Source: Arenicola marina (lineage: Eukaryota > Annelida > Polychaeta > Arenicolidae). Taken from it: 64,000 nucleotides of DNA. Both the position numbers and the translations under genes were made by a program. Shown piece after piece: positions 18,713 through 56,099 of this stretch (the stretch's first letter is position 1; every line of letters begins with the position of its first letter). The stretch covers positions 27,336,254-27,400,253 of the forward strand of contig OZ025260.1 of assembly GCA_964019135.1 (NCBI GenBank), given 5' to 3'. Under the pieces are notes generated by a model. It made no database searches, was not told where the DNA came from, and saw only the letters and a list, made by a program, of their open reading frames with translations.

Positions 18713-19771
18713 CAACATACATTCAGATCAGATAATATAAAATAACTCTATAATCATATTTCTTAGATCTTGTAATTACAGTTGACATTTAAATCATTAT
18801 TGCGTACATAGAGAGTGAAAGTCTAATCAGAACTGTGTTGCATATCAGCGTTCTCAATATACTATTCTATTCGGCTCTCACCTAACGTTATATGTCGCAC
18901 GTACAATGCTCGTTTGGCGATCGTAGCAGAACGGCGTTGGACAATCTGCTTTCTTCTCCTTGTTATTTTTGTTAAAGATCCTTTATCTGGCCAGAGCATC
19001 ATTCAGTTACAATTTATTACACATTACGGCATGCTCTGAATGAAATCCGACAAGCATCACAACTTTTAAAAAAACCAATACAAGGACAATCAAACCATCA
19101 CGTGGCTAAGAAAGTCGGGGCCTATGGCATAAAGCAGTTGTCTCGCCTCTTTAGACATCAAGTAGTGAGTCGAATTGTAAATAGCAAATTAACATCCCAA
19201 TTTGACTACATCTACAGAGTTTAAACATGGCCGGGTCTGCTCGCAAGAGCGAACTCTATTCTGCTTTCCGCACAATAGGGATTCTTCAGAGATTAAGTAG
19301 GTCAACAGAAAAGTCACACATATCAAACCATTATTTACATATATCCAAAATACAAAGACGCCATGATACGTCAATAGTACACGCCAAATACGTTGTGCAA
19401 CATGAGGTATTGATTGAACAAATATCACAAAAATCACCACATTTTTAGCGTCTTGTGACATGGTAAATGTACTATATCACCGCATAAATTCATTCAGCCA
19501 GCTTTGTATCATATATATATTTTTAGCATCTTTCTCGTATACAAATTAATAAAAGCAAACTTATCGTTTGAAGAAAAATCGTCTTACAGCTCGGTGCCTT
19601 ATATTAGAGGTCTCATACTTAGGTTCTGCCAATTAGTTGTAAAAAAAGCTCCTTAGAACAGACAGTCGGTTAACATATGGCCGTGGATAAACATTTGGTG
19701 AGGGTAGCTAATCCATGGCCAATCCATAGCCAAGCACAAAACGGATCTAAATGGCTTCTACTTAACATTCT
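18713..19771. other. Unit 1 left flank (3' side of TRP copy 1), lacks the MITE
   Basis: Homologous to 29896-31380 but without the 449-bp MITE: the sequence reads CTAACGTTATATGTCG across 18885-18900, an intact empty site. It also contains a 90-codon minus-strand open frame (19189-19461) whose homologues in the other units differ at the start and are frameshifted in unit 3, so it is probably not a gene. Confidence 0.6.
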
Positions 19772-22578
19772 ACATTGCACAAGGCCCGGCTCTGCCGTCC
19801 CGGCCTCCGAGTACATTACACAAGGCAAGGTGGACCTGGTTCACTAGGCGGCCCTACCGTCCCGGCCCCCGAGTACATTACACAAGGCAAGGTGGACCTG
19901 GCTCACTGGGCGGTCCGGCTCTGCCGTCCCGGCCCCTGAGTACATTACACAAGGCAAGCTGGACCTGGTTCACTGGACGGTCCGACCCTACCGTCCCGGC
20001 CCCCGAGTACATTACACAAGGCAAGGTGGACCTGTTTCAGTGGGCGACCCTACCGTCCAGGCCCCCGAGTACATTACACAAGGCAAGGTGGACCTGGTTC
20101 ACTAGGCGGCCCTACCGTCCATGCCTCCGAGTACATTACACAAGGCAAGGTGGACCTGGTTCACTGGGCGGCCCGTCCCTACCGTTCCGGCCCCCGAATA
20201 CATTACACAATGCAAGGTGGACCTGGTTCAGTGGGCGGCCCGTCCCTACCGCCCCGACCCCCGAGTACATTACACAATGCAAGGTGGACCTGGTTCACCG
20301 GGCGGCCCTACCGTCCCGGCCCCCGAGTACATTACACAAGGCAAGGTGGACCTGGCTCACTGGGCGGTCCGGCTCTGCCGTCCCGGCCCCTGAGTACATT
20401 ACACAAGGCAAGCTGGACCTGGTTCACTGGGCGGTCCGACCCTACCGTCCCGGCCCCCGAGTACATTACACAAGGCAAGCTGGACCTGGTTCACTGGACG
20501 GTCCGACCCTACCGTCCCGGCCCCCGAGAACATTACACAAGGCAAGGTGGACCTGTTTCAGTGGGCGACCCTACCGTCCAGGCCCCCGAGTACATTACAC
20601 AAGGCAAGGTGGACCTGGTTCACTGGGCGGTCCGACCCTACCGTCCCGACCCCCGAGTACATTACACAAGGCAAGGTGGACCTGGTTCAGTGGGCGGTCC
20701 GACCCTACCGTCCCGGCCCCCGAGTACATTACACAAGGCAAGGTGGACCTGGTTCACTGGGCGGTCCGACCCTACCGTCCCGGCCCCCGAGTACATTACA
20801 CAAGGCAAGGTGGACCTGGTTCACTGGGCGGTCCGACCCTACCGTCCCGACCCCCGAGTACATTACACAAGGCAAGGTGGACCTGGTTCAGTGGGCGGTC
20901 CGACCCTACCGTCCCGACCCCCGAGTACATTACACAAGGCAAGGTGGACCTGGTTCAGTGGGCGGTCCGACCCTACCGTCCCGGCCCCCGAGTACATTAC
21001 ACAAGGCAAGGTGGACCTGGTTCACTGGGCGGTCCGACCCTACCGTCCCGGCCCCCGAGTACATTACACAAGGCAAGGTGGACCTGGTTCACTGGGCGGT
21101 CCGACCCTACCGTCCCGACCCCCGAGTACATTACACAAGGCAAGGTGGACCTGGTTCAGTGGGCGGTCCGACCCTACCGTCCCGGCCCCCGAGTACATTA
21201 CACAAGGCAAGCTGGACCTGGTTCACTGGGCGGTCCGGCTCTGCCGTCCCGGCCCCCGAGTACATTACACAAGGCAAGGTGGACCTGGTTCACTGGGCGG
21301 CCCGTCCCTACCGTTCCGGCCCCCGAATACATTACACAATGCAAGGTGGACCTGGTTCAGTGGGCGGCCCGTCCCTACCGCCCCGACCCCCGAGTACATT
21401 ACACAATGCAAGGTGGACCTGGTTCACCGGGCGGCCCTACCGTCCCGGCCCCCGAGTACATTACACAAGGCAAGGTGGACCTGGCTCACTGGGCGGTCCG
21501 GCTCTGCCGTCCCGGCCCCTGAGTACATTACACAAGGCAAGCTGGACCTGGTTCACTGGGCGGTCCGACCCTACCGTCCCGGCCCCCGAGTACATTACAC
21601 AAGGCAAGCTGGACCTGGTTCACTGGACGGTCCGACCCTACCGTCCCGGCCCCCGAGAACATTACACAAGGCAAGGTGGACCTGTTTCAGTGGGCGACCC
21701 TACCGTCCAGGCCCCCGAGTACATTACACAAGGCAAGGTGGACCTGGTTCACTGGGCGGTCCGACCCTACCGTCCCGACCCCCGAGAACATTACACAAGG
21801 CAAGGTGGACCTGTTTCAGTGGGCGACCCTACCGTCCAGGCCCCCGAGTACATTACACAAGGCAAGGTGGACCTGGTTCACTGGGCGGTCCGACCCTACC
21901 GTCCCGACCCCCGAGTACATTACACAAGGCAAGGTGGACCTGGTTCAGTGGGCGGTCCGACCCTACCGTCCCGGCCCCCGAGTACATTACACAAGGCAAG
22001 GTGGACCTGGTTCACTGGGCGGTCCGACCCTACCGTCCCGACCCCCGAGTACATTACACAAGGCAAGGTGGACCTGGTTCAGTGGGCGGTCCGACCCTAC
22101 CGTCCCGGCCCCCGAGTACATTACACAAGGCAAGCTGGACCTGGTTCACTGGGCGGTCCGGCTCTGCCGTCCCGGCCCCCGAGTACATTACACAAGGCAA
22201 GGTGGACCTGGTTCACTGGGCGGTCCGGCCCTACCGTCCCGGCCCCCCGAGTACATTACACAATGCAAGGTGGACCTGGTTCACTGGGCGGTCCGGCCCT
22301 ACCGTCCCGGCCCCCCGAGTACATTACACAAGGCAAGCTGGACCTGGTTCACTGGGCGGTCCGGCCCTACCGTCCCGGCCCCCCGAGTACATTACACAAT
22401 GCAAGGTGGACCTGGTGCACTGGACGGTCCGGCCCTAACGTCCCGGCCCCCGAGTACATTGCACAAGGCAAGGTGGACCTGGTTCACCGGGCGGCTCTAC
22501 CGTCCCGGCCCCCGAGTATATTACACAAGGCAAGGTGGACCTGGTTTAGTGGGCGGCCCTACCGTCCCGGCCCCCATC
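19772..22578 (+). repeat. 67-bp minisatellite, expanded in unit 1 (about 41 units)
   Basis: The unit includes CCGAGTACATTACACAAGGC, AAGGTGGACCTGGTTCACTG, GGCGGTCCGACCCTACCGTC and CCGGCCC, about 67 bp. Variants (ACACAATGC, GTTTCAGTGGGCGACC) mark a higher-order block that recurs with an offset of 1129 bp, for example GAACATTACACAAGG at 20528 and 21657. Only two to three units are present at the same place in the other TRP units. The right edge overlaps the last codons and stop of TRP copy 1. Confidence 0.92.
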
Positions 22579-25500
22579 CTCCGCCGCCAGAACTCTGATA
22601 GGCCGTCCGCATCTGATCCAGACGGTGCTCAAGGCGCTGCAGGACCTTCTTGATCTCACTCACTTCCGCCGAGTCCGCGTCCTGCTGGACCTGCTCCATC
22701 GGGAGCACCATCTGCCAGCGCCGCGTGTCTGGATCGTACGACACCTGATCTTTGATGATCCCGAGACGGTTCAGCAGTCTGCGGATAAAGGGCGCCGACC
22801 GCTCGATCCGGAGCGCCAGGCGGACGCTACCGACTCGCCACGTGGTCCCCTCCTTGGACTTGATGTCGTTGTAGGTGTCGGACAGCATGGCGATCAGCAG
22901 GTTGAGGAGGATCACGGTGGACAGCGTGATGTAGAAGGAGTAGACGAAGCGGATGAACCAGATATCGCCTCCAACCTGGCTAAACAGCTGGTCCGCGCTT
23001 CCCTCCATGAACTGACCCATGCCCAACATCATGTTGTAGCACACAAAGAGGGTGTGCCAGATGGTCGGGTACATCGCAGCCATGCTGGGGACGACCATCA
23101 GACAGCAGTGAATCCCCGCCGCGAAGGCTGTGACGAAGAATGCATAGATAAATATGAACCTGATCATGTCCTTAATGATGATGTACGTCAGCATGATGGA
23201 GAAGGCGTGCATCGACTCGAAGCCCTTGGTGAAGACGATAGAAAAGAGCCAGTCGAAGACGAGACAGGGCACGAGAGGATAGACCTGGTTCCCGTCCTCT
23301 AAGCCATGGAGCACCACCCACGCCACCTGGCACGCCGCGAACATCAAAGCCGCCATGTGCGACAAATGGGTGAAGACCCAAACCACAATCATCCCGGGAA
23401 CGGCAGAAATTATCACATCTCCATGGCAACCCCTCCCCGACCACCGAAATGAGGACGTCTTACCCCTATAGACGTCTGCGATGGACGCCTTTCGCCAGCT
23501 GCGGATGGCGAAAATGACATGAAGGACCTGGAAGAGAACCAAGATGGCGGGCCAGATCAGGAACAGACTGACAGGAAACATGCGCTGAGGGCTGTGCTTC
23601 GCCGCGTGGTGAGTAAAATTAGAGTATCTATAGTACTCTGCAATCAGCGTAACGGAACGATCAGTGAAAAGAAACATGTAAGCAATATGAAAACACATCA
23701 GAAACAGGTAGATCCACTGGTAACGAGCCCAAAGATTCTGAACCAGCTGCCGGATTGGTACGATATCCAGGAACTGAGTGGCCATGACGTCATCCATGCC
23801 ATAAGCTATGATCTCCAGGCACGATCGGTTATTGGGCGTGTCTTCGTCGTCCATGTCCCCGTCCTCGATGACCCCGACTGTGGATTGGCTGGAGAAAGCC
23901 GACTTCTTCCTCGACGTCGTCTTCACCTTGGACGTGATGGTGTCCGGAGTGATGTTGGTAATGTCGAACTGGAAGCTCTTCCCGCTCCGCCTCTTGTAGA
24001 CGTCCTTCGTCTCCAGCATGGCTTTGAAGAGCCCTATCGCCCCCACGGCCACACTGTAAGCCAGGGCGTTGTAGCCAGTGTGGTTGTAGACGTCTGACGT
24101 CAGGTAGAAGAGCGCCTGGCGTCGATACTGAAGGTAGTGGTCGGACCCCTCGTCGGCGTGAGGCAGCTCGTGACAGATGCACCACCACAGGGCCGTGCAC
24201 CTCTGGATGGCGTCATAGACGTCCAGCAGCTTGTCCAGCTGGTGGGGCTCCAGCACCAGCTGTTCAGCCAGCTCGTGCAGCACCGTGTTGCCTTGGTCAT
24301 TCTTCTTAGCCAGGTCTGCTCCAGTGGCCACCAGGGTCTTCACCATGGTGGCGTCCCCACGCTTGGCACAGATGTGCAGTAATATCTCCCCTTCACCATT
24401 CTGTTGGTCGATGTATACCCCCTGTCCCTGTTTGTTGAAGACCTCCAACATTGCCGCTAGGACCTCAGCATGCCCCTCACTGGCAGCTACGTGCAGGGGG
24501 TTATTCCCCTTCTTGTTACGCAGGCTTGGGTTGAGTTGGTTCAGGTCACTGATGATCTCCGCTCGGTTACCATAGGCAGCGATGTGAAGCGCCGTGTTAC
24601 CCTTGACGTCACGCGCGTCCACCAGAGACCAGTTGTTGTTCTTGACAATAGTGTCGACGAGGAGCCGGATGACTTCGGGGGAGGCTGCCCCGGACCAGGC
24701 CGCCGCGTGGAGGGCCGTGTAACCCCGGCCGTTAGTGATATCTAACTTAGACTTCGGGATTAGCACTTGAGCCGCTGCCGCATGACCCTGCGACGCCGCC
24801 AAGTGGAGCGGAGTGTCGCCGTCGTTATTTTGCAGACTGACATCAACGTTGGACAGGAAGTTGCGCAACACCTCCACATGGTTTTCCCGCGCAGCCACGT
24901 GTAGGAATGTGTTATGGTTCTGGTCGAGACACTTTGGGTCTGTTCCCAGCGTGAAGAGACACTGTATCTTATCCACGTCTCCCGCCAGCGCCGCCACATG
25001 CAGTGGTGTGCGCCCCTGGGGAAACACCAACTTGCGGCCGCGCATGCGCTTCACTTGGCGGTACAAGCGCACCAAAGTCCTAAGCAGGACGGTATCATCT
25101 GTCTCCATACCAAAGGACCACATAGTCTGTCCCTGTTTATTGCGACAGTCAATATTGGCGCCATGACGCACCAGCGTCTCTATCACCTCCACGTGACCTG
25201 CCTTGACGGCCAGTAGCAGCGCTGTGTTGCCGGCGTCGTCTGCCTGGTCCACTGACACGCGGCTCTTCAGCAAGGTCTCCACCACAGTATCGTGGCCGTA
25301 GAGCGCCGCGAAGTGAAGTGCCGTCTGGTTATTGGTGATACGGGTATTTACTTCCCCGCCGTGACTCAGCAATATCTGTAGGATGTCGTCGTAGCCCAGA
25401 GCCGCGGCCAAGACAATGGGCGACACCAGCCCCAGCTTGCGGTTCTGGTGGATGTCGGCTCGGCCCTCGGTGACCAGTACGCGGACGAGGTCGGAGAAGC

Positions 25501-26605
25501 CGTAGCGGACTCCCCAGTAGAGCGGCGTGGACCCCTTGTCGTTCTGGTGGTGTAGGTCGGCCCCCAGCTGTATGAGCCGCCGTACAGTCTCTATGTGATT
25601 ACCCCGGGCCGCCCACAGCACCGCCGTGTCGTGCTTGTTATTGGTGTGGTTCACGTCCACCCCGAGTTTGACCAACACCTCCACCATCTTCGTGTTACCG
25701 TTCAGCGCCGCGATGTGAATGGCCGGTAGAGGGCGCGGGCGCTGGCCGGCCGGCTCCATCAGCACCGCTTGTCTCAGGAAGTGAGCTTTAGTCTCACCTG
25801 GGCGGAGCCGATCCAGAAAGATCTCGGCTAGCTCCAGATACTCCTGCCTCTCCGCCAAGAGGTGGAGGCACGTCTTCTTGGACGTGAGTTTCCCGGCCGC
25901 CACGTCCAACTCCTGCATCAGGTCCTCCTCCGATGCATTCTGGATCATGAACCCGGCCACCGCCTTCTGGCCGTCCTGCAGGGCGCGGTGAAGCGCAGTG
26001 GCCGCGTTGTCAGGATCTCTCAGCTCTCGATCGCCCAGGGCCTTTTTGCCGTGCTGGATACGTGTGTACACCTCCTGACACTTAGCAGCGTCGTCGCTCT
26101 CCACGGCCTTGAAGAGCTCTTTCCGCAATATCTCCCAACCGGCGTGCCGCTTGAGATCTCCGGAACATGTCTTCACGGCTTCGGGTTCTTCGTCCAGTCG
26201 GGCAGCGTGCGTACGCGGCGGTCGGCTCTGATATAAAATGAGTAATCACTGCATGAATTAATTTGTTGACGGCCACGCGACCACGCTAAAAAACGCATTA
26301 AAGCGCGCAGAATTTGAGTGCAAAAGTATGACGTCACGCACGCGCGGGGGGGGGGGAGCAGACGACAGACCTACTTTTGAAGTCACAAGCACAGTCGTCC
26401 TTGACGACTTTTTTGCACTAGGAAGGCTAAATTGTACTATTGTACCAGTGTGGCATGGTATCAACCAAAGGTAACCGATGCGTCCACGGGTGACAACAAG
26501 TGTAATAAATTCACAAGAATGATCTTGATTTCTTACCTTCAGAACTTTGATGAGAGCTTTGAAGTCGCCGTCCAAATTTGGATTGCTGGGGTCCAGTTGT
26601 TCCAT
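22559..26605 (-). CDS. TRPV-related ankyrin-rich cation channel, copy 1 (1245 aa)
   Basis: Two exons. Exon 1 is 26605-26537 (23 codons, MEQLDPSN...KVLK; A at -3 and G at +4; donor GTAAGA). Exon 2 is 26227-22559 (acceptor TATATCAG, phase 0). About 17 ankyrin repeats span residues 95-790, with cores such as TPLHLAASQGH and TALHFAALYGH. A pre-membrane segment SCLEIIAYG...PIRQLVQNLW matches the TRPV pattern. Six membrane segments lie at about 855-1145. A TRPV-like pore helix and filter read MMLGMGQF near 1090, S6 ends VILLNLLIAMLSDTY, and a TRP-box-like stretch with TTW follows. Vertebrate TRPV channels have six ankyrin repeats, so this is an expanded relative; TRPVL or TRPN affinity is possible. 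Such channels are plasma-membrane cation channels for chemical, thermal or mechanical stimuli. Copy 1 is the most divergent at the C terminus (VQQDADSAEVSEIKK). The final GPGR and TAG come from the 67-bp repeat. Confidence 0.85.
26228..26536 (-). promoter_or_regulatory. TRP copy 1 intron with CRE-like palindrome TGACGTCA
   Basis: The 309-bp intron contains the palindrome TGACGTCA at 26329-26336, next to CGCACGCGCG and a G-run. It is kept in units 2 (35301-35308) and 3 (44246-44253) and missing in unit 4. CREB/ATF-type binding is inferred from the motif only. Confidence 0.4.
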
Positions 26606-27562
26606 TCTGCGTGTTGGCTACAGAACGTCCTTAAATCAAGTCTACGTGGGGAGAACAGGGACAATGTAATGTGTTATTTAAGGCAATGATTTCGCCGTTA
26701 CGCCATGTAGGCCTACTCAGGTTGCCATGGATATCATATTAGCAAATATGATTTCGTTGTCTTGGCCTTGTACTTTTGGGATTAACCCTACCGCCGGTGA
26801 GAACAAATATAGCACCAAATATTGGGTACATTATAACACATTTCCGGAGCAGTAATATTTATTTCAAATGTTATGGTATGTAGGCGATTGCGCATAAAAT
26901 GTTGTTTACTTTTCAGATGATTGGGTCGGAAACAATGTGTCTTACATCACACATCTATATGTAATGCCCTGATATAATGCACTGCTTTAGTGACCTCAAG
27001 CTTTACATGTTTTACTTACTGAGTACCACGGGAAAAGTCTCCCGGCTTGAAGCAGTGTTGGCAGATGTGAACACTCTTCCTCAAACGTGGGAGTATTTGG
27101 CGGGAAGCTGGTTTAAAAACTGGTATAAATTGAACATCAATAAACCGGTCTCGCAGAGTATCCACTTCTCGTCCACCTGCAATTCTCACAGATACGCGAA
27201 TCCCAAGCGTAGAACAGGTCATGCGCTGTCGTCCACCTGCAAGTCTCGCAGATCATCGACTCTCCCGAGCGTAAAACGTTGTCGTTCAGCGAGCCAGTGT
27301 CATGGATCGTGCGTTCTCCACCAAGTAATGAGCAATTTGTTCAATTCAATTTCGATCTATAGAATAGGTTTGGCAAAAACTCGTGCGACAGAGTCCCAGG
27401 TTTAATGATAATATTCAGCTGTCCGTGACGTTATCGGTGAGGTTCATCTGCTTTTCCTTGACGCTCTGGACCAATGGGAATCATCGGGGGTGTCTTATCG
27501 AGATTCCGCCCAACGTCAATGGGGTGGGGGCGGGATGTCGGGCCGACCGTCTACGGTCACGT

Positions 27563-27650
27563 CAGTGAGGGGGTGAGAGAGTGAGGGGGTGAGGGGGTGA
27601 GATGGTGAGGGAGTGAGAGGGTGAGGGGGTGAGCGGGTGGGAGGGGCAGC
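27563..27650 (+). repeat. GTGAGGGG microsatellite, unit 1
   Basis: About ten units of GTGAGGGG/GTGAGAG give many G-runs, so the plus strand could form a G-quadruplex. It lies about 1 kb upstream of the TRP copy 1 start. Confidence 0.75.
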
Positions 27651-28021
27651 CTAGATCATGGAGGCCTGACAGCATCGAGAGGGGAATGTTGGGGGAAGCA
27701 GGGTAAGAAAGACGATGAAAAGGTCACTCGTCCCGTTGGAGTGGGAAGGGGAGGGAGGGGGAGGGGTAGGCAGATTTATAACTTAGTTCTTGTAGTTGGT
27801 CAGCAAAGAGCTGTCTTGGCAGCGTTAATATATGGCTCGTTTCCCGATCTGCTTTTAAACGTGAAAGCTTTAAGGCCCACTTTTGCTTCCCCTGGTTACA
27901 CGGGATTGCGTGATCCACCCAGAAACAGGCTAACAATTAACAAACACCACACTGATAAGCGACTCGCCTCGGCGTGGCTCTGTGCGTCGCTGGGGTCCAA
28001 GGCTTAGTTACTTAGAGACGG

Positions 28022-28053
28022 CGAAACCCGACAGCTCTCAACTGTCGGGTTCG
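28022..28053. other. Hairpin, unit 1
   Basis: AACCCGACAG, a 7-base loop, then CTGTCGGGTT forms a perfect 10-bp stem. The same hairpin occurs in units 2 (36991-37022) and 3 (45944-45975). In unit 4 (55075-55106) one arm is mutated (CTGTCGAGTT). It resembles an intrinsic terminator in shape, but in an animal genome it has no assigned role. Confidence 0.55.
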
Positions 28054-29083
28054 TGTCATTTACAACCCAATTAAACATTAGCTGGCTACTTGAACCACCG
28101 ACAATCGTGATTCGTCTGAAGCCGGCTTCATCAAGGATGTCAAGGATTGATCATCACCAGCCTTCAGGCTTAAACGCTCCAATCGATAGGCTCAAAGCAA
28201 AACTACATGTCCACAACTACACAGTGCGTGCTGCATTAAGGCGCTGGTCTCGGGAAATCTTTTCATTTCCGTTGGCACCTCAGCTTATCACCGAGAATAT
28301 ATTCGTAAAATCCTCAAAAATAAAATCTGTCGGTCTATCAGTGAGTAGTATTTTAACTCAAAATTGTACCCGGCGAAGTGTAAAGGACGGGGTAATTGGC
28401 ATATATAAGGGTTTTAATTGGTGTACACAATCCGTTAAACCGCTTTGGGTTGTTCTGTCAGCTCAATGTTATTGGCAGGTTGTGGTGATGTTTAACGCCC
28501 GGTTAACCCCTCACTATTTTTGCTCTGATGGCCGGGGCATTGCACTACTATGAAAATAGGCTGTTATTTATTATCACCAGCAGGCCAAATAGCACTCTTT
28601 GATGATAAAACGAGTTGGGTCAAATTCTAGTTTCTATGAGAGACCGTCAAACCCAGCACTTTACTTTACCCCTTAACACGATCAAATGTGCTCATACTTC
28701 GTCCAGTTTTACCATGTTGTAAGTCACAAAGGTACATGTGCTGTGGGCCTGATGGCCTAGAAAACCATAAAGCTATTTATCATTGTGAGGCACCTTATAG
28801 CACAGATATCTATGTATCCGCATAGATGTTATTTAGCAAGAAAACAAGACCCCCCCCCTCCCCTTCCAGTATAGCAGAAACAAGAATGGACTCGTCCACG
28901 CTGACGACCCTAGAAACCCGTTTTTATTGAAGTCAAAGAATAGACCGTTCTAGGTACCCCAGGCGATATCTATCGTCCAAAAAAAGGACACTACGTTTTT
29001 CGGATTAGAAAACCGATTCTCGCATGCGTTTACCATGCATTCGTATGGAGTTAGTTCAGGTGCCCGGCTTCAACGTTTCTTTT

Positions 29084-29895: not shown

Positions 29896-30053
29896 CAACA
29901 TATATTCAGATCAGATAATATGAAATAAGTCCATAATCATATTTCTTAGATCTTGTAATAACAGTTTACATTTAAATCAGTACATGAAATCTAATCACAA
30001 CTGTTTTCAGCGTTCTCAAAATACTATTCTATTCGGCTCTCACCTAACGTTTT
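29896..30053. other. Start of unit 2
   Basis: Junction of units 1 and 2, matching 18713 and the positions 38842 and 47817. No gene is seen. Confidence 0.6.
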
Positions 30054-38038: not shown

Positions 38039-38052
38039 TCAACGTTTCTTTT

Positions 38053-44527: not shown

Positions 44528-46990
44528 TCTGCGTGTTGGCTACAGAACGTCCTTAAATCAAGTCTACGTGGGGAGAACAGGGACAATGTAATGTGTTATT
44601 TAAGACAATGATTTCGCCGTTACGCCATGTAGGCCTACTCAGGTTGCCATGGATATCATATTAGCAAATATGATTTCGTTGTCTTGGCCTTGTACTTTTG
44701 GGATTAACCCTACCGCCGGTGAGAACAAATATAGCACCAAATATTGGGTACATTATAACACATTTCCGGAGCAGTAATATTTATTTTAAATGTTATGGTA
44801 AGTAGGCGATTGCGCATAAAATGTTGTTTACTTTTCAGATGATTGGGTCGGAAACAATGTGTCTTACATCACACATCTATATGTAATGCCCTGATATAAT
44901 GCACTGCTTTAGTGACCTCAAGCTTTACATGTTTTACTTACTGAGTACCACGGGAAAAGTCTCCCGGCTTGAAGCAGTGTTGGCAGATGTGAACACTCTT
45001 CCTCAAACGTGGGAGTATTTGGCGGGAAGCTGGTTTAAAAACTGGTATAAATTGAACATCAATAAACCGGTCTCGCAGAGTATCCACTTCTCGTCTACCT
45101 GCAATTCTCACAGATACGCGAATCCCAAGCGTAGAACAGGTCATGCGCTGTCGTCCACCTGCAAGTCTCGCAGATCATCGACTCTCCCGAGCGTAAAACG
45201 TTGTCGTTCAGCGAGCCAGTGTCATGGATCGTGCGTTCTCCACCAAGTAATGAGCAATTTGTTCAATTCAATTTCGATCTATAGAATAGGTTTGGCAAAA
45301 ACTCGTGCGACAGAGTCCCAGGTTTAATGATAATATTCAGCTGTCCGTGACGTTATCGGTGAGGTTCATCTGCTTTTCCTTGACGCTCTGGACCAATGGG
45401 AATCATCGGGGGTGTCTTATCGAGATTCCGCCCAACGTCAAGGGGGTGGGGGCGGGATGTCGGGCCGACCGTCTACGGTCACGTCAGTGAGGGGGTGAGA
45501 GAGTGAGGGGGTGAGGGGGTGAGATGGTGAGGGAGTGAGAGGGTGAGGGGGTGAGCGGGTGGGAGGGGCAGCCTAGATCATGGAGGCCTGACAGCATCGA
45601 GAGGGGAATGTTGGGGGAAGCAGGGTAAGAAAGACGATGAAAAGGTCACTCGTCCCGTTGGAGTGGGAAGGGGAGGGAGGGGGAGGGGTAGGCAGATTTA
45701 TAACTTAGTTCTTGTAGTTGGTCAGCAAAGAGCTGTCTTGGCAGCGTTAATATATGGCTCGTTTCCCGATCTGCTTTTAAACGTGAAAGCTTTAAGGCCC
45801 ACTTTTGCTTCCCCTGGTTACACGGGATTGCGTGATCCACCCAGAAACAGGCTAACAATTAACAAACACCACACTGATAAGCGACTCGCCTCGGCGTGGC
45901 TCTGTGCGTCGCTGGGGTCCAAGGCTTAGTTACTTAGAGACGGCGAAACCCGACAGCTCTCAACTGTCGGGTTCGTGTCATTTACAACCCAATTAAACAT
46001 TAGCTGGCTACTTGAACCACCGACAATCGTGATTCGTCTGAAGCCGGCTTCATCAAGGATGTCAAGGATTGATCATCACCAGCCTTCAGGCTTAAACGCT
46101 CCAATCGATGGGCTCAAAGCAAAACTACATGTCCACAACTACACAGTGCGTGCTGCATTAAGGCGCTGGTCTCGGGAAATCTTTTCATTTCCGTTGGCAC
46201 CTCAGCTTATCACCGAGAATATATTCGTAAAATCCTCAAAAATAAAATCTGTCGGTCTATCAGTGAGTAGTATTTCAACTCAAAATTGTACCCGGCGAAG
46301 TGTAAAGGACGGGGTAATTGGCATATATAAGGGTTTTAATTGGTGTACACAATCCGTTAAACCGCTTTAGGTTGTTCTGTCAGCTCAATGTTATTGGCAG
46401 GTTGTGGTGATGTTTAACGCCCGGTTAACCCGTCACTATTTTTGCTCTGATGGCCGGGGCATTGCACTACTATGAAAATAGGCTGTTATTTATTATCACC
46501 AGCAGGCCAAATAGCACTCTTTGATGATAAAACGAGTTGGGTCAAATTCTAGTTTCTATGAGAGACCGTCAAACCCAGCACTTTACTTTACCCCTTAACA
46601 TGATCAAATGTGCTCATACTTCGTCCAGTTTTACCATGTTGTAAGTCACAAAGGTACATGTGCTGTGGGCCTGATGGCCTAGAAAACCATAAAGCTATTT
46701 ATCATTGTGAGGCACCTTATAGCACAGATATCTATGTATCCGCATAGATGTTATTTAGCAAGAAAACAAGACCCCCCCCTCCCCTTCCAGTATAGCAGAA
46801 ACAAGAATGGACTCGTCCACGCTGACGACCCTAGAAACCCGTTTTTATTGAAGTCAAAGAATAGACCGTTCTAGGTACCCCAGGCGATATCTATCGTCCA
46901 AAAAAAGGACACTACGTTTTTCGGATTAGAAAACCGATTCTCGCATGCGTTTACCATGCATTCGTATGGAGTTAGTTCAGGTGCCCGGCT
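44528..46990. other. Unit 3 5' flank of the TRP gene, no gene recognised
   Basis: Near-identical to the unit 1 flank. It contains the GTGAGGGG tract (45485-45570) and the hairpin at 45944-45975. Confidence 0.5.
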
Positions 46991-47004
46991 TCAACGTTTC
47001 TTTT

Positions 47005-47269
47005 TTGGGGGGCCAGCGCGATAGCTCAGTGGGCTAAAGCGCTCGCATTGAGTTCTCTGGCTACCTGAGAGCCTAAAAGCACGTAGATCGGTAGTTCGAG
47101 CCCTGCTGTGGACATGTCTGTGTGGTCGCAGGATAAAGATCCCATGTCTTTCTTTGTAAAGAGTAGGGGGTTACCCCGGAGACATAGCTCCACTCTCCCT
47201 TCCTTCTCCCATTGACGCGATATGACTAAAAGTGGTTAAAGCGTCATAAATAACCAACCAACCAACCAA
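47005..47269 (+). mobile_element. tRNA-derived SINE, unit 3
   Basis: Orthologous to the unit 1 SINE, with TCAACGTTTCTTTT at 46991-47004 and 47270-47283. The text GCGTCATAAATAACC is shared with unit 1 rather than the GCGTCCTAAATAACC of unit 2. Confidence 0.87.
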
Positions 47270-47974
47270 TCAACGTTTCTTTTGCCAGGGATAGGTTGGT
47301 TTTATGGCATTGTCATTTCCAGAACAAACATACAAGATGTCTCTAACAAGTTATGAATTCTGTAAAAAATATATTCCGGAATTATATTTTTAATATATCT
47401 AGACAAAATAGACGCCAGAACGATCATTATTCCGGCACTGAAAACATCAGCCAACCTTGAATATGACCGCGTTCATGCGCGCACGCACAGGCCACAATGC
47501 CCATAGCGTCGTGAAAGTCATTACATTCGCAGGTTGGCATTTATATCAGCTGTTTTCTCGGCTTATCTGCCTCCGTCTCGTTCTTAAAAAGGTATCATTT
47601 GATAGTCAAGATATGTATCTGTACAAAGTGGGTTTATGATTTTAGAAAACACCCTGTTAACCGATGGCAAACTGTTAAAAATGATGCGGCTATAAGTCAG
47701 TACCCGCATTTGGCATGCTATGCAGCGCAGAGCGAGCTAGGGTTGACCCGAAACACGCGCCTGGCAGAATTTCCCCTGAAACGTTCTATTGCACGACGTT
47801 TTCGATGACGTACCCACAACATATATTCAGATCAGATAATATGAAATAAGTCCATAATCATATTTCTTAGATCTTGTAATAACAGTTTACATTTAAATCA
47901 GTACATGAAATCTAATCACAACTGTTTTCAGCGTTCTCAAAATACTATTCTATTCGGCTCTCACCTAACGTTAT

Positions 47975-48423
47975 GGGTGAGTTCGGGTATGCGAGCGGAG
48001 TAGTCGGACTCCGAGGAGTGCTTAACCGAACGTGGAGATTGTGGCTCGATAGCGCGGTCACGTGGTACATCTTACTCCCGGATCTTACTCCCCACTCAGA
48101 GGAGGATCACGAGGATTTCCAACATGGCGTCCAGGCCCAACAATACGTAAAATATGTATAAAGTAGTATTTTGACCTGCAACAAATCTGTAAATAATATT
48201 ATAACAACTAGAATAAAATAATGAACACAACACGTATCCGTGGATTTATTTTATGGTATTGTTTAACGATTTTCATGATTTGTGCGGTTCAGCAAGTGCA
48301 ACATTCACGCGGACCGAGGATTTTGCGTTCGGTTTATCTTGATCCGCACATGAGCGGAAAGTACGAGTGCGCATGCTCCAAATATCTGCGCCGATTACTC
48401 CGGTCGCATATCCGAACTCAACC
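47975..48423. mobile_element. MITE with about 33-bp TIRs, unit 4
   Basis: Same insertion as at 30054 and 39000, with TAT flanks. Confidence 0.82.
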
Positions 48424-49311
48424 TATATGTCGAACGTACAATGCTCGTTTGGCGATCATAGCAGAACGGTGCTGGACAATCCTCTGCTTTCTTCTCCTCG
48501 GACATTTTTGTTAAAGATCCTTTATCTGGCCAGAACATCATTCAGTGACAAATTATTACACATTACGGCATGCTCTGAATGAAATCCGACAAGCGTCATA
48601 ACTTTTTAAAAAACAATACAAGGACAATCAAACCATCACATGGCTAAGAGAGGTCGCTTCCTATCGAATAAAGCAGTTGCCTCGCCTCTTTAGACATCAA
48701 GTAGCGAGTCGAATTGTAAATAGCAAATTAACATCCCAATTTGACTACATCTACAGAGTTTAAACATGGCCGGGTCTGCTCGCAAGAGCGAACTCTATTC
48801 TGCTTTCTGCACAATAGAGATTCTCTAGAGATTAAGTAGGTCAACAGAAAAGTTACACATATCATACCATCATTTACATATATCCAAAATACAAAGATGC
48901 CATGATACGTCAATAGTACACGCCAAATACGTTGTGCAACATGAGATTGATTGAACAAATATCACAATAATCACCACATTTTTAGCTTCTTGTTACATGA
49001 TAAATCCCCTATATCACAGCATAAATTCATTCAGCCAGCTTTGTATCATATATATATATTTAGCATCTTTCTCGTATACAAATTAATAAAAGTAAACTTA
49101 TCGTTTAGAGAAAAATCGTCTTACAGCTGTGCCGCCATGTTAGAGGTCTCATACTTCGGTTCCCCCAATAAGTTGTAACCAAATCTATTTAGGACAGACT
49201 GTCGGTTAACATATGGCCGTGGATAAACATTTGGTGAGGGTAGCTAATACATGGCCAATCCATAGCCAAGCACAAAACGGATCTAAATGGCTCCTACTCA
49301 ACATTCTACAT

Positions 49312-49471
49312 TGCACAAGGTCCGGCTCTGCCGTCCCGGCCCCCGAGTACATTACACAAGGCAAGGTGGATCTGGTTCACTGGGCGGCCCTACCGCCCCG
49401 GCCCTCGAGTACATTACACAAGGCAAGGTGGACCTGGTTCAGTGGGCGGCCCTACCGCCCCGGCCCCAATC
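49312..49471 (+). repeat. Unexpanded 67-bp repeat, unit 4
   Basis: Two to three units beside the TRP copy 4 stop. One unit reads GGCCCTCGAGTACATTACAC. Confidence 0.85.
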
Positions 49472-52400
49472 CTCCGCCGCCAGAACTCTGATAAGCCGTC
49501 CGCATCTGATCCAGACGGTGCTCCAGGCGCTGCAGGACCTTCATGATCTCACACACATCCGCCGAGTACCCGTCCTCCTGTACCTGCTCCATCGGGAGCA
49601 CCATCTGCCAGTGCCGCGTGTCTGGATCGTACGACACCTGGTCTTTGATGATACCGAGACGGGTCAGCAGTCTGCGGATAAAGGGCGCCGACCGCTCGAT
49701 CCGGAGCGCCAGGCGGATGCTCCCGACTCGCCACGTGGTCCCCTCCTTGGACTTGATGTCGTTGTAGGTGTCGGACAGCATGGCGATCAGCAGGTTGAGG
49801 AGGATCACGGTGGACAGCGTGATGTAGAAGCCGTAGACGAAGCGGACGAACCAGATATCGCCTCCAACCTGGCTAAACAGCTGGTCCGCGCTTCCCTCCA
49901 CGAACTGACCCATGCCCAACATCATGTTGTAGCACATAAAGAGGGTGTGCCAGATGGTCGGGTACATCGCAGCCATGCTGGGGACGACCATCAGACAGCA
50001 GTGAATCCCCGCCGCGAAGGCTGTGACGAAGAATGCATAGATAAATATGAACCTGATCATGTCCTTAATGATGATGTACGTCAGCATGATAGAGAAGGCG
50101 TGCATCGACTCGAAGCCCTTGGTGAAGACGATAGAAAAGAGCCAGCCGAAGACGAGACAGGGCACGAGAGGATAGACCTGGTTCCCGTCCTCTAAGCCAT
50201 GGAGCACCACCCACGCCACCTGGCACGCCGCGAACATCAAAGCCGCCATGTGCGACAAATGGGTGAAGACCCAAACCACAATCATCCCGGGAACGGCAGA
50301 AATTATCACATCTCCATGGCAACCCCTCCCCGACCTCCGAAATGAGGACGTCTTACCCCTATAGACGTTTGCGATGGACGCCTTTCGCCAGTTGCGGATG
50401 GCGAAAATGACATGAAGGACCTGGCAGAGAACCAAGATGGCGGGCCAGATCAGGAACAGACTGACAGGAAACATGCGCTGAGGGCTGTGCTTCGCCGCGT
50501 GGTGAGTAAAATTAGAGTATCTATAGTACTCTGCAATCAGCGTAACGGAACGATCAGTGAAAAGAAACATGTAAGCAATATGAAAACACATCAGAAACAG
50601 GTAGATCCACTGGTAACGAGCCCAAAGATTCTGAACCAGCTGCCGGATTGGTACGATATCCAGGAACTGAGTGGCCATGACGTCATCCATGCCATAAGCT
50701 ATGATCTCCAGGCACGATCGGTTATTGGGCGTGTCTTCGTCGTCCATGTCCCCGTCCTCGATGACCCCGACTGTGGATTGGCTGGAGAAAGCCGACTTCT
50801 TCCTCGACGTCGTCTTCACCTTGGACGTGATGGTGTCCGGAGTGATGTTGGTAATGTCGAACTGGAAGCTCTTCCCGCTCCGCCTCTTGTAGACGTCCTT
50901 CGTCTCCAGCATGGCTTTGAAGAGCCCTATCGCCCCCACGGCCACACTGTAAGCCAGGGCGTTGTAGCCAGTGTGGTTGTAGACGTCTGACGTCAGGTAG
51001 AAGAGCGCCTGGCGTCGATACTGAAGGTAGTGGTCGGACCCCTCGTCGGCGTGAGGCAGCTGGTGACAGATGCACCACCACAGGGCCGTGCACCTCTGGA
51101 TGGCGTCATACACGTCCAGCAGCTTGTCCAGCTGGTGGGGCTCCAGCACCAGCTGTTCAGCCAGCTCGTGCAGTACCGTGTTGCCTTGGTCATTCTTCTT
51201 AGCCAGGTCTGCTCCAGTGGCCACCAGGGTCTTCACCATGGTGGCGTCCCCACGCTTGGCACAGATGTGCAGTAAAGTCTCCCCTTCACCATTCTGTTGG
51301 TCGATGTATACCCCCTGTCCCTGTTTGTTGAAGACCTCCAACATTGCCGCTAGGACCTCAGCATGCCCCTCACTGGCAGCTACGTGCAGGGGGTTATTCC
51401 CCTCCTTGTTACGCAGGCTTGGGTTGAGTTGGTTCAGATCACCGATGATCTCCGCTCGGTTGCCATAGGCAGCGATGTGAAGCGCCGTGTTACCCTTGAC
51501 GTCACGCGCGTCCACCAGAGACCAGTTGTTGTTCTTGACAATAGTGTCGACGAGGAGCCGGATGACTTCGGGGGAGGCTGCCCCGGACCAGGCCGCCGCG
51601 TGGAGGGCCGTGTAACCCCGGCCGTTAGTGATATCTAACTTAGACTTCGGGATTAGCACTTGAGCCGCTGCCGCATGACCCTGCGACGCCGCCAAGTGGA
51701 GCGGAGTGTCGCCGTCGTTATTTTGCAGACTGACATCAACGTTGGACAGGAAGTTGCGCAACACCTCCACATGGTTTTTCCGCGCAGCCACGTGTAGGAA
51801 TGTGTTATGGTTCTGGTCGAGACACTTTGGGTCTGTTCCCAGCGTGAAGAGACACTGTATCTTTTCCACGTCTCCCGCCAGCGCCGCCACATGCAGTGGT
51901 GTGCGCCCCTGGGGAAACACCAACTTGCGGCCGCGCATGCGCTTCACTTGGCGGTACAAGCGCACCAAAGTCCTAAGCAGGACGGTATCATCTGTCTCCA
52001 TACCAAAGGACCACATAGTCTGTCCCTGTTTATTGCGACAGTCAATATTGGCGCCATGACGCACCAGCGTCTCTATCACCTCCACGTGACCTGCCTTGAC
52101 GGCCAGTAGCAGCGCTGTGTTGCCGGCGTCGTCTGCCTGGTCCACTGACACGCGGCTCTTCAGCAAGGTCTCCACCACAGTATCGTGGCCGTAGAGCGCC
52201 GCGAAGTGAAGTGCCGTCTGGTTATTGGTGATACGGGTATTTACTTCCCCGCCGTGACTCAGCAATATCTGTAGGATGTCGTCGTAGCCCAGAGCCGCGG
52301 CCAAGACGATGGGCGACACCAGCCCCAGCTTGCGGTTCTGGTGGATGTCGGCTCGGCCCTCGGTGACCAGTACGCGGACGAGGTCGGAGAAGCCGTAGCG

Positions 52401-53449
52401 GACTCCCCAGTAGAGCGGCGTGGACCCCTTGTCGTTCTGGTGGTGTAGGTCGGCCCCCAGCTGTATGAGCCGCCGTACAGTCTCTATGTGATTACCCCGG
52501 GCCGCCCACAGCACCGCCGTGTCGTGCTTGTTATTGGTGTGGTTCACGTCCACCCCGAGTTTGACCAACACCTCCACCATCTTCGTGTTACCGTTCAGCG
52601 CCGCGATGTGAATGGCCGGTAGAGGGCGCGGGCGCTGGCCGGCCGGCTCCATCAGCACCGCTTGTCTCAGGAAGTGAGCTTTAGTCTCACCTGGGCGGAG
52701 CCGGTCCAGAAAGATCTCGGCTAGCTCCAGATACTCGTGTTTCTCCGCCAAGAGATGGAGGCACGTCTTCCTGGACGTGAGTTTCCCGGCCGCCACATCC
52801 AACTCCTGCATCAGGTCCTCCTCCGGTGCGTTCTGGATCATGAACCTGGCCACCGCCTTCTGGTCGTCCTGCAGGGCGCGGTGGAGCGCAGTAGCCGAGT
52901 TATCAGGGTCTCTCAGCTCGGCATCGCTCAGAGACTTCTTGCTGTGCTGGATACGTGTGCACACCTCCTGACACTTAGCAGTGTCATCGCTCTCCACGGC
53001 CTCGAAGAGCTCTTTCCGCAACATCTCCCAACCGGCGTGCCGCTTGAGATCTCCGGAACATGTCTTCACGGCTTCGGGTTCTTCGTCCAGTCGGGCAGCG
53101 TGCGTACGCGGCGGTCGGCTCTGAAATAAAATGACATTTCACTGCAGTGATTTCATTTGCTAAAAAAGCATTAAAGCGCAGAATTTGGGTGCAAAGGTGT
53201 GGAAGCAGACGACAGACTTACTTTGGATGTCACAAGCACAGTCGTCCTTGACTGTTTTGCACTTGGAAGACTAAATTGTACTATTGTACAAGTGTGGCAT
53301 GGTATCAACCAAAGGTAACCGATGCGTCCACGGGTGACAACAAGTGTAATAAATTCACAAGAATGATCTTGATTTCTTACCTTCAGAACTTTGATGAGAG
53401 CTTTGAAGTCGCCGTCCAAATTTGGATTGCTGGGGTCCAGTTGTTCCAT
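49452..53449 (-). CDS. TRPV-related ankyrin-rich channel, copy 4 (1245 aa)
   Basis: Exon 1 is 53449-53381 and exon 2 is 53120-49452; the intron is shortened to 260 bp. It is open throughout, with the same length as the others. The first roughly 125 residues of the main exon differ from copy 1 at about 15 sites (for example EMLRKELFEA, DDTAKCQEVC, HSKKSLSDAEL, DDQKAVARF, NAPEED). The remaining roughly 1080 residues are nearly identical to copy 2, with VEKI, ARKNH, LVLCQ, IANVY and SADVCEI as private changes. This sharp change suggests a conversion or crossover point near 52690-52745. It is the 5'-most gene of the array in minus-strand order. Confidence 0.85.
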
Positions 53450-53525
53450 TCTGGGTGTTGGCTTCAGGACGTCCTTAAATCAAGCCTACGTGGGGAGCAC
53501 CGGGACAATGTAATGTGATATTTAA

Positions 53526-53919
53526 AGTTGCATGTGGAGTTGTTTCGCTGTTTTTGAATGCCAAATTTGCGCATAAGAACACAAACCTAAGGCCTTAAGT
53601 TTCATAACAGACAATAAACACCTACCATATCGCTCACCAATTATCTGCCAATGAGCAAAACATTTCAAATTCATGAATTGTCCGCCACAAAAATGAAAAC
53701 TTGTGCTGATTTGAAACGTCATAAACGTGTGTACACAAGTCGTTTACCGGTGCCACCGACAGGGGGCCCAAGCGCTAAATTATATGAGACAATAGAAGCG
53801 TCCGGAGCGCCACTTTTTCTTTGGCGGTGGCCTTTGACACTGCTTGTGGTCAAAGGTAACATTTCCTGTTTATGTTTATTTTGGTACAGCCGTTGCAACG
53901 GTCAGCTCCACATGTAACT
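53526..53919. mobile_element. MITE with TTAA target duplication, unit 4 only
   Basis: The left end AGTTGCATGTGGAGTTG pairs with the right end CAGCTCCACATGTAACT with two mismatches. TTAA stands directly on both sides (53522-53525 and 53920-53923). The other three units have the uninterrupted site TTATTTAAGRCAATG. TTAA duplication is typical of piggyBac and some Kolobok elements. The 394-bp interior is non-coding. Confidence 0.85.
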
Positions 53920-53923
53920 TTAA

Positions 53924-56010
53924 GATACTGATTTCGCCGTTTCGCCATGTAGGCCTACTCAGGTTGCCATGGATATCATCTTAGCAAATATGATTTCGTT
54001 GTCTTGGCCTGTACTTGTGGGATTAACCCTACCGCCGATGAGAACAAATATAGCACCAAATATTGGGTACATTATAACACATCTCCAGAGCAGTAATATT
54101 TACTTCAAATGTTATGGTAAGTATACGTTATTGCGCATAAAATGTTATTAACTTTTCAGATGATGGGTCGGAAACAATGTGTCTTACATCACACATCTAT
54201 ATGTAATGCCCTGATATAATGCACTGTTTTAGTGACCTCAAGCTTTACATGTTTTACTTACTGAGTACCACGGGAAAAGTGTCCAGGCTTGAAGCAGTGT
54301 TGGCAGATGTGAACACTCTTCCTCAAACGTGGGAGTATTTGGCGGGAAGCTGGTTTAAAAACTGGTATAAATTGAACATCAATAAACCGGTCTCGCAGAA
54401 AATCCACTTCTCGTCCACCTGCAATTCTCACAGATCATCGACTCTCCCGAGCGTAGAACAGGTCATGCGCTGTCGTCCACCTGCAAGTCTCACAGATCAT
54501 CGACTCTCCCGAGCGTAGAACGGTGTCGTTCAGCGGGCCAGTCCAACGGATCGTGCGTTCTCCACCACGTAATGAGCAATGCCTTATCAGGAGAACGCCC
54601 ACCGTCAAGGGGGCGAGGGGGTGAGGGGGTGGAGGGGGGTGGGGGAGCGGGATGTCGGGCCAACCGCCTACGGTCACGTCAGTGAGGGGGTGAGAGGGTG
54701 AGGGGGTGGGAGGGGCGACCTAGTGATGGCGGTGTCGTTCATGAGGGCCTGACAGCATCGAGAGGGGAATGTTGGGGGAAGCAGGGGAAGGAAGACGATG
54801 AGAAGGTCACTCGTCCCGAGGGAGTGGGGAGGGAGGTGGGGGGGGGCAGATGTCTTGGCAGCGTTAATATATGGCTCGTTTCCCGTTCTGCTTTTAACCG
54901 TGAAAGCTTTAAGGCCCACTTTTTCCGAGTGTCTGCTTCCCCTGGTTACAGGGGATCGCGTGATCCACCCAGAAACAGGCTAACAATTAACAAACACCAC
55001 ACTGATAAGCGACTCGCCTCGGCGCGTGGCTCTGTGCGTCGCTGGGTTCCAAGGCTTAGTTACTTAGAGACGGCGAGACCCGACAGCTTTCAACTGTCGA
55101 GTTCGTGTCATTTACAACCCAATTAAACATTAGCTGGCTACTTGAACCACAGAAAATCGTGATTCGTCTGAAGCTGGCTTCATTAAGGATGTCAAGGATT
55201 GATCATAACCAGCCTTCATGCTTAAACGCTTCAATCGATGGGCTCAAAGCAAAACTACATGTCCACAACCATACAATGCGTGCTGCATTAAGGCGCTAGT
55301 CTCGGGAAATCATTTCATTTCCGTTGGCACCTCAGCCTATCACCGAAAATATATTCGTAAAATCCTTAAAAATAAAATCTGTCAGTCTATCAGTGAGTAT
55401 TTTAACTCAGAATTGTAACCAGCGAAGTGTAAAGGACGGGGTAATTGGCATAGATGTGGGTTTTAATTGGTGTAAACAATCAGTTAAGCCGCTTTAGGTT
55501 GTTCTGTCAGCTCAATGTTATTGGCAGGTTGTGGTGATGTTTAACGCCCGCTTAACCTGTCACTATTGTTCACTGATGGCCGGGGCACTGCACTACTACG
55601 GAAATAGGCTGTTATTTGTGACCTGCGCTTTCACCAGCCTGAGGATTGCCAAATAGCACTCTTTGATGATAAAACGAGTTGGGTCAAATTCTAGTTTCTA
55701 TGAGAGACCGTCAAACCCAGCACTTTACTTTACCCCTTAACACGATCAAATGTGCTCATACTTCGTCCAGTTTTACCATGTTGTAAGTCACAAAGGTACA
55801 TGTGCTGTGGGCCTGATGGCCTAGAAAACAATAAAGCTATTTATCATTGTGAGGCACCTTATAGCACAGATATCTATGTATCCGCATAGATGTTATTTAG
55901 CAAGGAAACAAGACCCCCCCCCCCTCCCCATCCAGTATAGCAGAAACAAGAATGGACTCGTCCACGCTGACGACCCTAGAAACCCGTTTTTATTGAAGTC
56001 AAAGAATAGA
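53924..56010. other. Unit 4 5' flank, diverged, no gene recognised
   Basis: Homologous to 26690-28950 but with many substitutions and small indels, such as the loss of the GTAGTTGGTCAGCAAAGAGC segment. It includes a G-rich GTGAGGGG tract at 54606-54715 and a damaged copy of the hairpin near 55075-55106. Confidence 0.5.
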
Positions 56011-56076: not shown

Positions 56077-56099
56077 CGCGTGCCTAAGTTCTGCAATAG

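What the first reader, a model, noticed from the sequence alone, without database searches (positions are those of the whole stretch)
18713..56010. Four intact, near-identical TRPV-related genes in a recent tandem array
All four copies are open, the same length and spaced 8945-8976 bp apart (stop to stop). Equal length over 1245 codons with no frameshift points to recent duplication, gene conversion or constraint. An expanded family of sensory-type channels in one locus is a plausible lineage-specific adaptation.
Basis: partly seen in the sequence, partly recalled or inferred. Interest (0 to 1): 0.75.

Follow-up and report, generated by a model that had tools for sequence, protein, structure and literature searches.

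The report
Four tandem long-ankyrin TRPV-type channel genes
An invertebrate genome, most likely a worm's, carries four intact, nearly identical copies in a row of a gene for a sensory-type ion channel that joins a TRPV-like pore to an unusually long ankyrin-repeat arm, and exchange between the copies seems to have kept them alike.

Summary
Four minus-strand genes each have a 69-base first exon, a 260-314-base intron and a 3669-base second exon. All encode 1245 residues without internal stops; stop-to-stop spacings are 8972, 8945 and 8976.

"TRPV-related" holds for the channel: the 60 displayed of 197 solved-structure matches to a family profile are all TRPV. It is not a canonical TRPV: about 16-18 ankyrin-type repeats instead of six, and a family-typical histidine where nearly all TRP channels have an S4-S5 glycine whose replacement is known to alter gating.

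"Recent" is partly right. The array's edges have diverged 6-8%, inner units 0.3-1.5% in non-coding DNA, and the coding copies are mosaics: an older duplication kept alike by unequal crossing-over and gene conversion.

Selection is purifying overall (44 of 105 changes synonymous, 31.2 expected, P = 0.002), not detectable in the membrane region (5 of 23). Adaptation is untested.

Simple end-to-end joining of two haplotypes is disfavoured: only gene 4 has its diverged upstream edge and a transposon-like insert. Exact copy number needs long reads.

The parts
22559..26227 (-). gene 1, exon 2 (1222 codons + stop): ankyrin domain, six membrane helices, TRP helix
   Evidence: Pfam ankyrin hits
26537..26605 (-). 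gene 1, exon 1 (23 codons, MEQLDPSNPNLDGDFKALIKVLK), donor GTAAG
31531..35199 (-). gene 2, exon 2
35514..35582 (-). gene 2, exon 1
40476..44144 (-). gene 3, exon 2
   Evidence: structure model of 40476-44060
44459..44527 (-). gene 3, exon 1
49452..53120 (-). gene 4, exon 2
53381..53449 (-). gene 4, exon 1
22426..31397 (.). repeat unit 1 (8972 bp)
31398..40342 (.). repeat unit 2 (8945 bp)
40343..49318 (.). repeat unit 3 (8976 bp)
49319..56010 (.). repeat unit 4, partial: gene 4 plus a diverged copy of the upstream region (about 6% different, 17-19 indels)
18713..19782 (.). left edge: diverged partial copy of the region downstream of the inner genes (62-63 of 889-890 bases differ over 18889-19782)
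19795..22575 (.). 67-bp minisatellite, 42 copies, abutting the 3' end of gene 1; about 2.3 copies at the same place in units 2-4 (31402, 40347, 49323)
53522..53923 (.). insert with 21-nt inverted ends (90% complementary) beginning with TTAA on both sides, about 73 bp upstream of the gene 4 start codon; units 1-3 are continuous there

Best explanation
A tandem family of four probably functional, nearly identical genes for a long-ankyrin TRPV-type cation channel of a lophotrochozoan animal. An ancestral gene (one tiny first exon, one giant second exon) was duplicated in tandem; later unequal crossing-over and gene conversion kept the middle of the array uniform, while the outer edges (3' side of gene 1, 5' side of gene 4) escaped and kept diverging. 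The protein most likely forms a tetrameric cation channel in which about 16-18 ankyrin-type repeats form a long cytoplasmic arm joined by a TRPV-like linker to the S1-S6 pore and TRP helix; its S4-S5 linker has histidine in place of the gating glycine of other TRP channels. Shown: gene structure, intact frames, edge/centre divergence, mosaic coding sequence, TRPV-like channel sequence, the histidine. Inferred: tetramer, permeation, gating effect, sensory role, expression, and that the minisatellite at unit ends helps exchange.
Against: Membrane region: 5 synonymous, 18 non-synonymous, 5.2 synonymous expected; gene 1 and gene 2 branches (omega 0.79, 0.95; P 0.34, 0.57) and the gene 2/4 split (3 of 9 synonymous) do not depart from neutrality. 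Gene 1 has D1015 where all 25 relatives in A2 have G. Pfam's Ion_trans was not among the hits of genes 1 and 2 and reached only 16.5 bits, under its cut-off of 25, on the gene 3 channel piece, though all nine members of A3 match it at E 0.01 or better; two also match PKD_channel. The top Foldseek hit of the whole model is NOMPC. No transcript evidence; copy number rests on one assembly.
Confidence: 0.75

Rival explanations
1. Copy number is inflated by assembly: alleles of a shorter array (at least two units) were threaded into one path, so some of the 'paralogues' are alleles.
For: Units 1 and 3 are almost identical outside exon 2 (0.31%) while unit 2 differs from both by 1.4-1.5%, a level that could be allelic. 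Genes 1/3 and 2/4 alternate: in exon 2 nine sites have the pattern 0101, one 0110, none 0011; upstream 15, one and one. Gene 3 has 22 private changes with no donor in the window, as a haplotype switch could give.
Against: Simple end-to-end joining of [A B] and [A' B'] fails: gene 2 lacks the diverged 5' region, the diverged upstream DNA and the insert that mark gene 4, so it is not an allele of gene 4 over that stretch. At least two units (left-edge and right-edge type) are needed.
Confidence: 0.25
2. A recent burst of duplication with little selection: relaxed or decaying copies kept open by youth.
For: Branch omegas for genes 1 and 2 (0.79, 0.95) and the membrane region (1.05) do not differ from neutrality; gene 1 has a change at a glycine otherwise invariant in A2.
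Against: Overall synonymous excess P = 0.002, gene 3 branch P = 0.0045; no coding indel or stop in 4 x 3738 bases although introns and upstream DNA of gene 4 carry indels; exon 1 unchanged. Edges 6-8% apart show that the array is not wholly young.
Confidence: 0.2
3. Adaptive expansion: copies amplified and diversified for a sensory task, with two pore isotypes (genes 1/3: V1085, M1097; genes 2/4: M1085, V1097).
For: The isotype differences fall in the predicted pore helix and just behind the filter GMGQ (sites, helices, numbering); 18 of 23 membrane-region changes are non-synonymous.
Against: No branch or region showed an excess of non-synonymous change; the highest omega was 1.05. Relatives vary at these sites. 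Homogenisation is the dominant pattern.
Confidence: 0.12

Closest known systems
TRPV channels (TRPV1-6)
   Same: Channel sequence from the pre-S1 motif through S1-S6 to the TRP helix; filter GMGx as in TRPV1 (GMGD); last six repeats, linker strands and channel align to TRPV6
   Different: About 16-18 ankyrin-type repeats instead of six; H at the S4-S5 glycine (TRPV1 G563) and at the S1 aromatic (TRPV1 Y441); filter GMGQ without the acid
TRPVL (vanilloid-like), described for Annelida and Cnidaria
   Same: Sister of TRPV, reported from the annelid Capitella teleta (PMC8749608, passages)
   Different: Published consensus W - N G F/Y F W N F I A A (PMC9242649, section with Table 1) against W Y H H F Y Y N L I A W here; no labelled TRPVL sequence could be compared
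TRPA1 / TRPAbasal
   Same: Long ankyrin arm: 16 repeats in Capitella TRPAbasal (PMC6451338, passages), 17 in fly TRPA1; the Littorina homologue P0020 is named TRPA1-like
   Different: A680- and W697-equivalents are A and W in all four genes and in 25 of 25 relatives, where TRPA1 has G and R
TRPN / NOMPC
   Same: Long ankyrin arm; H at the third fingerprint position as in the TRPN1 row; NOMPC is the first Foldseek hit
   Different: 13 other long-ankyrin TRP proteins, two of them named NompC or TRPN, score 40.7-64.9 bits with the channel profile, TRPV6 128.2; the TRPN1 row has the S4-S5 glycine
Tandem TRP expansions of the Pacific oyster
   Same: Lophotrochozoan TRP genes multiplied, with tandem duplicates of TRPV4 (eight copies) (PMC8004665, passages)
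   Different: Other TRP subfamilies; near-identity and mosaic exchange are not described in the passages seen

Membership tests
TRP channel superfamily | Fingerprint W F (F/Y) G (F/Y) (F/Y) (F/Y) N L I A W; 95% of TRPs have at least nine (PMC9242649) | tested here: met
   9 of 12, the lower limit: position 2 is Y, 3 is H, 4 is H. Columns set by my reading of the TRPV1 alignment, TRPV6 and recalled TRPV1 numbering; tallies
TRPV | Channel-domain sequence closest to TRPV | tested here: met
   60 displayed of 197 PDB matches to profile A3 are TRPV; the other 137, and TRPA1 and TRPC scores, were not displayed
TRPV | N-terminal domain of six ankyrin repeats (recalled) | tested here: not met
   About 16-18 helix pairs by my reading of the model; TRPV6 covers only model 471-1157
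TRPV | Consensus G at the TRPV1 G563 position and Y at Y441 (PMC9242649 Table 1) | tested here: not met
   H at both in all four genes; relatives H 22 of 25 and H 25 of 25
TRPVL | Consensus fingerprint W - N G F/Y F W N F I A A | tested here: not met
   Differs at positions 2, 3, 4, 7, 9 and 12; the consensus is a summary row, so single TRPVL proteins may differ from it
TRPVL | Grouping with Capitella and cnidarian TRPVL in a tree | not testable with these tools
   No labelled TRPVL sequence among the rows displayed by the three protein searches
TRPA | TRP-helix residues N-L-I-G...R | tested here: not met
   A and W at the last two places in four of four genes and 25 of 25 relatives
TRPA | Whole-length fold like TRPA1 | tested here: inconclusive
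TRPN | Channel-domain sequence closest to TRPN | tested here: not met
   40.7-64.9 bits for 13 long-ankyrin TRPs (two named NompC/TRPN) against 112.8-128.2 for the 60 TRPV rows displayed; NOMPC's own score was not displayed

The most novel reading that the evidence does not exclude
The window shows a distinct, uncharacterised lophotrochozoan TRP subfamily that combines a TRPV-type pore with a TRPA/TRPN-length ankyrin arm and has natural histidine in place of the S4-S5 glycine that holds other TRP channels shut (partner of the conserved TRP-helix tryptophan, which is kept). It is amplified here into an array kept uniform by exchange, yet holding two alternating pore isotypes able to form mixed tetramers.
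Probability: 0.4. Interest if true: 0.65.

Novelty: new variant of a known kind. Interest (0 to 1): 0.45.

Why it matters
The TRPV1 G563 position is glycine in 98% of the TRP channels of a large alignment (PMC9242649). Its replacement gives gain of function in TRPV1, TRPV3 (Olmsted syndrome) and TRPC4/5 (same paper, one passage), although another study saw no larger basal current for mouse TRPV3 G573S (PMC7935860, passages). A family with natural histidine there (22 of 25 relatives and all four genes) is a test of how that hinge works, and of what a long ankyrin arm does on a TRPV-type pore. A 2024 review suggests that large receptor genes such as TRPs might be less prone to tandem duplication (PMC11526382, passages); here four stand in tandem with the edge-versus-centre mark of unequal exchange. 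Tandem TRP expansion itself is already reported for oyster (PMC8004665).

Tried and rejected
Rejected: a prokaryotic or viral origin. The genes are spliced, and the named hits that cover 90% or more of the query (P0004, P0015, P0020, P0022) are all from animals; hits outside animals cover 55% or less (ankyrin part). Rejected as genes: the plus-strand ORFs within 20026-22653, which lie wholly or mostly in the 67-bp minisatellite, and the plus-strand ORFs at 22625, 31366, 40311 and 49287, which lie antisense to exon 2 or over the unit junction. Rejected: further copies of the gene; tblastn of four queries against both flanks and one intergenic stretch gave nothing below E 0.89.

Led nowhere: Pfam in six frames of the left flank, of 26310-31290 and of the right flank to 63500 gave 0 families. 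This is weak evidence of absence: short exons are easily missed, and Pfam barely saw the channel of the genes themselves. Rfam 0, tRNA 0. The single-sequence channel model was poor (pLDDT 44.7) and was not used. A motif check and a profile alignment of 13 TRPN-like proteins at the S4-S5 glycine were inconclusive: the motif found 0 of 13 and the alignments begin at that very place. Lead not tested: the 'gammaTRPA' clade of cephalopods, mostly sequences without TRPA annotation (PMC13402157, passages), could be the same family. NCBIfam ankyrin-effector hits fall far below their cut-offs and reflect ankyrin repeats in general.

Literature: five searches (72 rows displayed in all, with repeats) showed no title or abstract start on a long-ankyrin TRPV-type family or on this array; most subscription papers are not held, including the one I recall as the first TRPVL description. 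Of the papers cited I saw passages or one section, none in full.

The count fell from 10 to 9 of 12, and I raised the odds of the novel reading from 0.3 to 0.4, its interest from 0.6 to 0.65 and the overall interest from 0.4 to 0.45 for that reason.

Full report
What is there. The window holds four minus-strand genes in units of 8972, 8945 and 8976 bases plus a partial fourth unit. Each gene has a 69-base exon 1 (23 codons), an intron of 309, 314, 314 or 260 bases with GTAAG donor and CAG acceptor, and a 3669-base exon 2; the product is 1245 residues in all four, with one stop, at the end. That exon is supported by homology: the annotated Paralvinella protein P0004 starts MAEVDFNNPNLDGDFKALLQV, and a Bugula protein (P0022) has SLDGDFKALL near its start.

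What the protein is. Pfam finds many ankyrin repeats in genes 1 and 2. A profile of the channel part of nine family members (A3: gene 3 and eight relatives) matches TRPV6 at E 3.9e-36; the 60 displayed of 197 matches are TRPV6, V5, V3, V4 and V1. The alignment starts before S1 and runs to the TRP helix. Thirteen other long-ankyrin TRP proteins, two of them named NompC or TRPN, score 40.7-64.9 bits with the same profile. TRPA1 and TRPC scores were not displayed. Pfam's general Ion_trans model sees the channel poorly: not listed for genes 1 and 2 at E 0.1, 16.5 bits on the gene 3 piece, but matched by all nine members of A3. The AlphaFold model of gene 3 (residues 52-1245, 26 sequences, mean pLDDT 81.3, pTM 0.53) shows about 16-18 helix pairs by my reading, a strand pair in the linker, six membrane helices, a pore helix, a TRP helix and a strand pair after it. 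TRPV6 aligns to model residues 471-1157, i.e. the last six repeats plus channel, and fly TRPA1 to nearly the whole model; the structural lists are dominated by the ankyrin part and cannot rank channel families. So the protein looks like a whole TRPV with ten to twelve further repeats in front.

Fingerprint. Of 12 residues shared by TRP channels (PMC9242649), nine are met. The other three are Y863 for F434, H870 for Y441 and H1030 for G563 of rat TRPV1. Among 25 relatives these places hold Y22 F3, H25 and H22 F1 N1 S1; the W697 equivalent is W in 25 of 25. The TRPV1 and TRPV6 alignments put their glycine opposite H1030. Of 28 proteins, a motif search found H in 25 and F in one, and no motif in two. 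All four window genes have H870, H1030, Q1095 and W1153. The glycine is the site of gain-of-function changes in TRPV1, TRPV3 and TRPC4/5. What histidine does there is not known.

Relatives. The search with the whole protein scored 7993 candidates, found 3114 at E 0.001 or better and listed 120; 23 of those cover 74% or more of the query, the rest 55% or less. The closest, P0001, is 61% identical and unnamed. Of the 25 relatives used in A2 (P0016, P0023, P0121 and P0122, shorter, were left out) five are named: Paralvinella, Dimorphilus (two), Littorina and Bugula. The host is most likely an annelid; this is inference. In a tree of 29 proteins the four genes form one clade, 100/100, so with this sampling the array arose after the split from P0001. 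P0012, P0013 and P0125 (45-76% identical) share the same longest-contig length, 1,461,564, which suggests but does not prove another cluster.

How old and how homogenised. Over 26606-31397 (unit 1 coordinates) units 1 and 3 differ by 15 of 4791 bases (0.31%), units 1 and 2 by 72 of 4760 (1.51%), units 2 and 3 by 66 of 4759 (1.39%); unit 4's upstream region differs from them by 124-128 of about 2100 (5.9-6.1%) with 17-19 indels; the left-edge copy differs from unit ends by 62-63 of 889-890. In coding DNA, private changes are clustered: gene 4 28 of 36 in CDS 1-486, gene 1 18 of 24 from 2790, gene 3 21 of 22 from 1572. The longest identical run was reached in 0 of 5000 shuffles for pairs 1-3 and 2-4, in 3, 11 and 15 for 1-2, 1-4 and 2-3, and in 1406 for 3-4, which is ordinary. 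Units 1 and 3 differ more in exon 2 (47 of 3669, 1.3%) than outside it (0.31%), the reverse of the usual order, so parts of exon 2 in these units have other histories: exchange with a copy or allele not in the window, or, for unit 3, haplotype switching in the assembly.

Selection. Pairwise dN/dS (NG86) is 0.33-0.59. Against a neutral placement of the same base changes, the 105 variable sites contain 44 synonymous against 31.2 expected (P = 0.002, omega about 0.59). By branch: gene 3 12 of 22 (P = 0.0045), gene 4 16 of 36 (P = 0.063), gene 1 8 of 24 (P = 0.34), gene 2 4 of 13 (P = 0.57), the 2/4 split 3 of 9 (P = 0.55), one further site. By region: N-terminal part 13 of 31 (P = 0.17), ankyrin core 7 of 12 (P = 0.07), distal ankyrin 11 of 20 (P = 0.025), membrane part 5 of 23 (5.2 expected, P = 0.63), C-terminus 8 of 19 (P = 0.07). 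P values are not corrected for the number of tests, and the test ignores base context. So function has been maintained in the array as a whole; constraint on each single copy and on the membrane part is not shown. Gene 1 has D1015 where the 25 relatives in A2 have G.

Assembly. A plain joining of two two-gene haplotypes is disfavoured: gene 4 alone has the diverged upstream DNA and an insert of 402 bases with 21-nt inverted ends starting with TTAA, and gene 1 alone has the diverged 3' side. At least two real units are needed; that there are exactly four on one chromosome is as assembled.

Function. By the family, a tetrameric cation channel with a long cytoplasmic arm is expected (established TRP knowledge; not tested). 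The filter is GMGQ in all four genes; 16 of 25 relatives have D or E in the place of the Q and none has Q, which predicts a weaker preference for divalent ions. Genes 1/3 and 2/4 differ at V/M1085 in the predicted pore helix and M/V1097 just behind the filter. Whether the stimulus is heat, chemical or mechanical cannot be said.

Verdict. Real and intact; a TRPV-type channel in a long-ankyrin variant with an unusual gating residue; an older tandem duplication kept alike by exchange; adaptation possible but without support here. Tandem TRP arrays are known in lophotrochozoans (PMC8004665); the channel type is the more interesting part, and its name (TRPVL, a new subfamily, or the cephalopod gammaTRPA) needs a labelled tree.

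Noticed in passing
3333-4863, 5109-7144, 14854-16317, 19795-22575: Four large minisatellites (35-bp x 44, 22-bp x 93, 27-bp x 54, 67-bp x 42) within 20 kb on the left side; several of the long open frames outside the four genes lie in such arrays.
   Followed up: partly
53522-53923: Insert with 21-nt inverted ends starting with TTAA, like a small non-autonomous DNA transposon, about 73 bp upstream of the gene 4 start codon. It may alter the gene 4 promoter.
   Followed up: yes
1244-1489, 7487-7747, 10805-10976 and about 29088-29348: A dispersed repeat of about 170-260 bp, 80-89% identical, in the left flank and the intergenic part of unit 1.
   Followed up: no
56001-62150: GC falls to 32-37% with growing C excess (skew to -0.30) and internal repeats 67-80% alike; no Pfam domain in six frames.
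   Followed up: partly
27565-27639, 36540-36614, 45487-45561, 54682-54714: A GTGAGGGG-type short tandem repeat upstream of each gene, shorter in unit 4.
   Followed up: no
gene 1, residue 1015 (S4 region): Aspartate at a glycine that the 25 relatives of A2 and genes 2-4 keep; gene 1 may be altered in function.
   Followed up: partly
all four genes, residues 870 and 1030: Histidine at two TRP fingerprint places (TRPV1 Y441 and G563 equivalents), shared by 25 of 25 and 22 of 25 relatives.
   Followed up: yes
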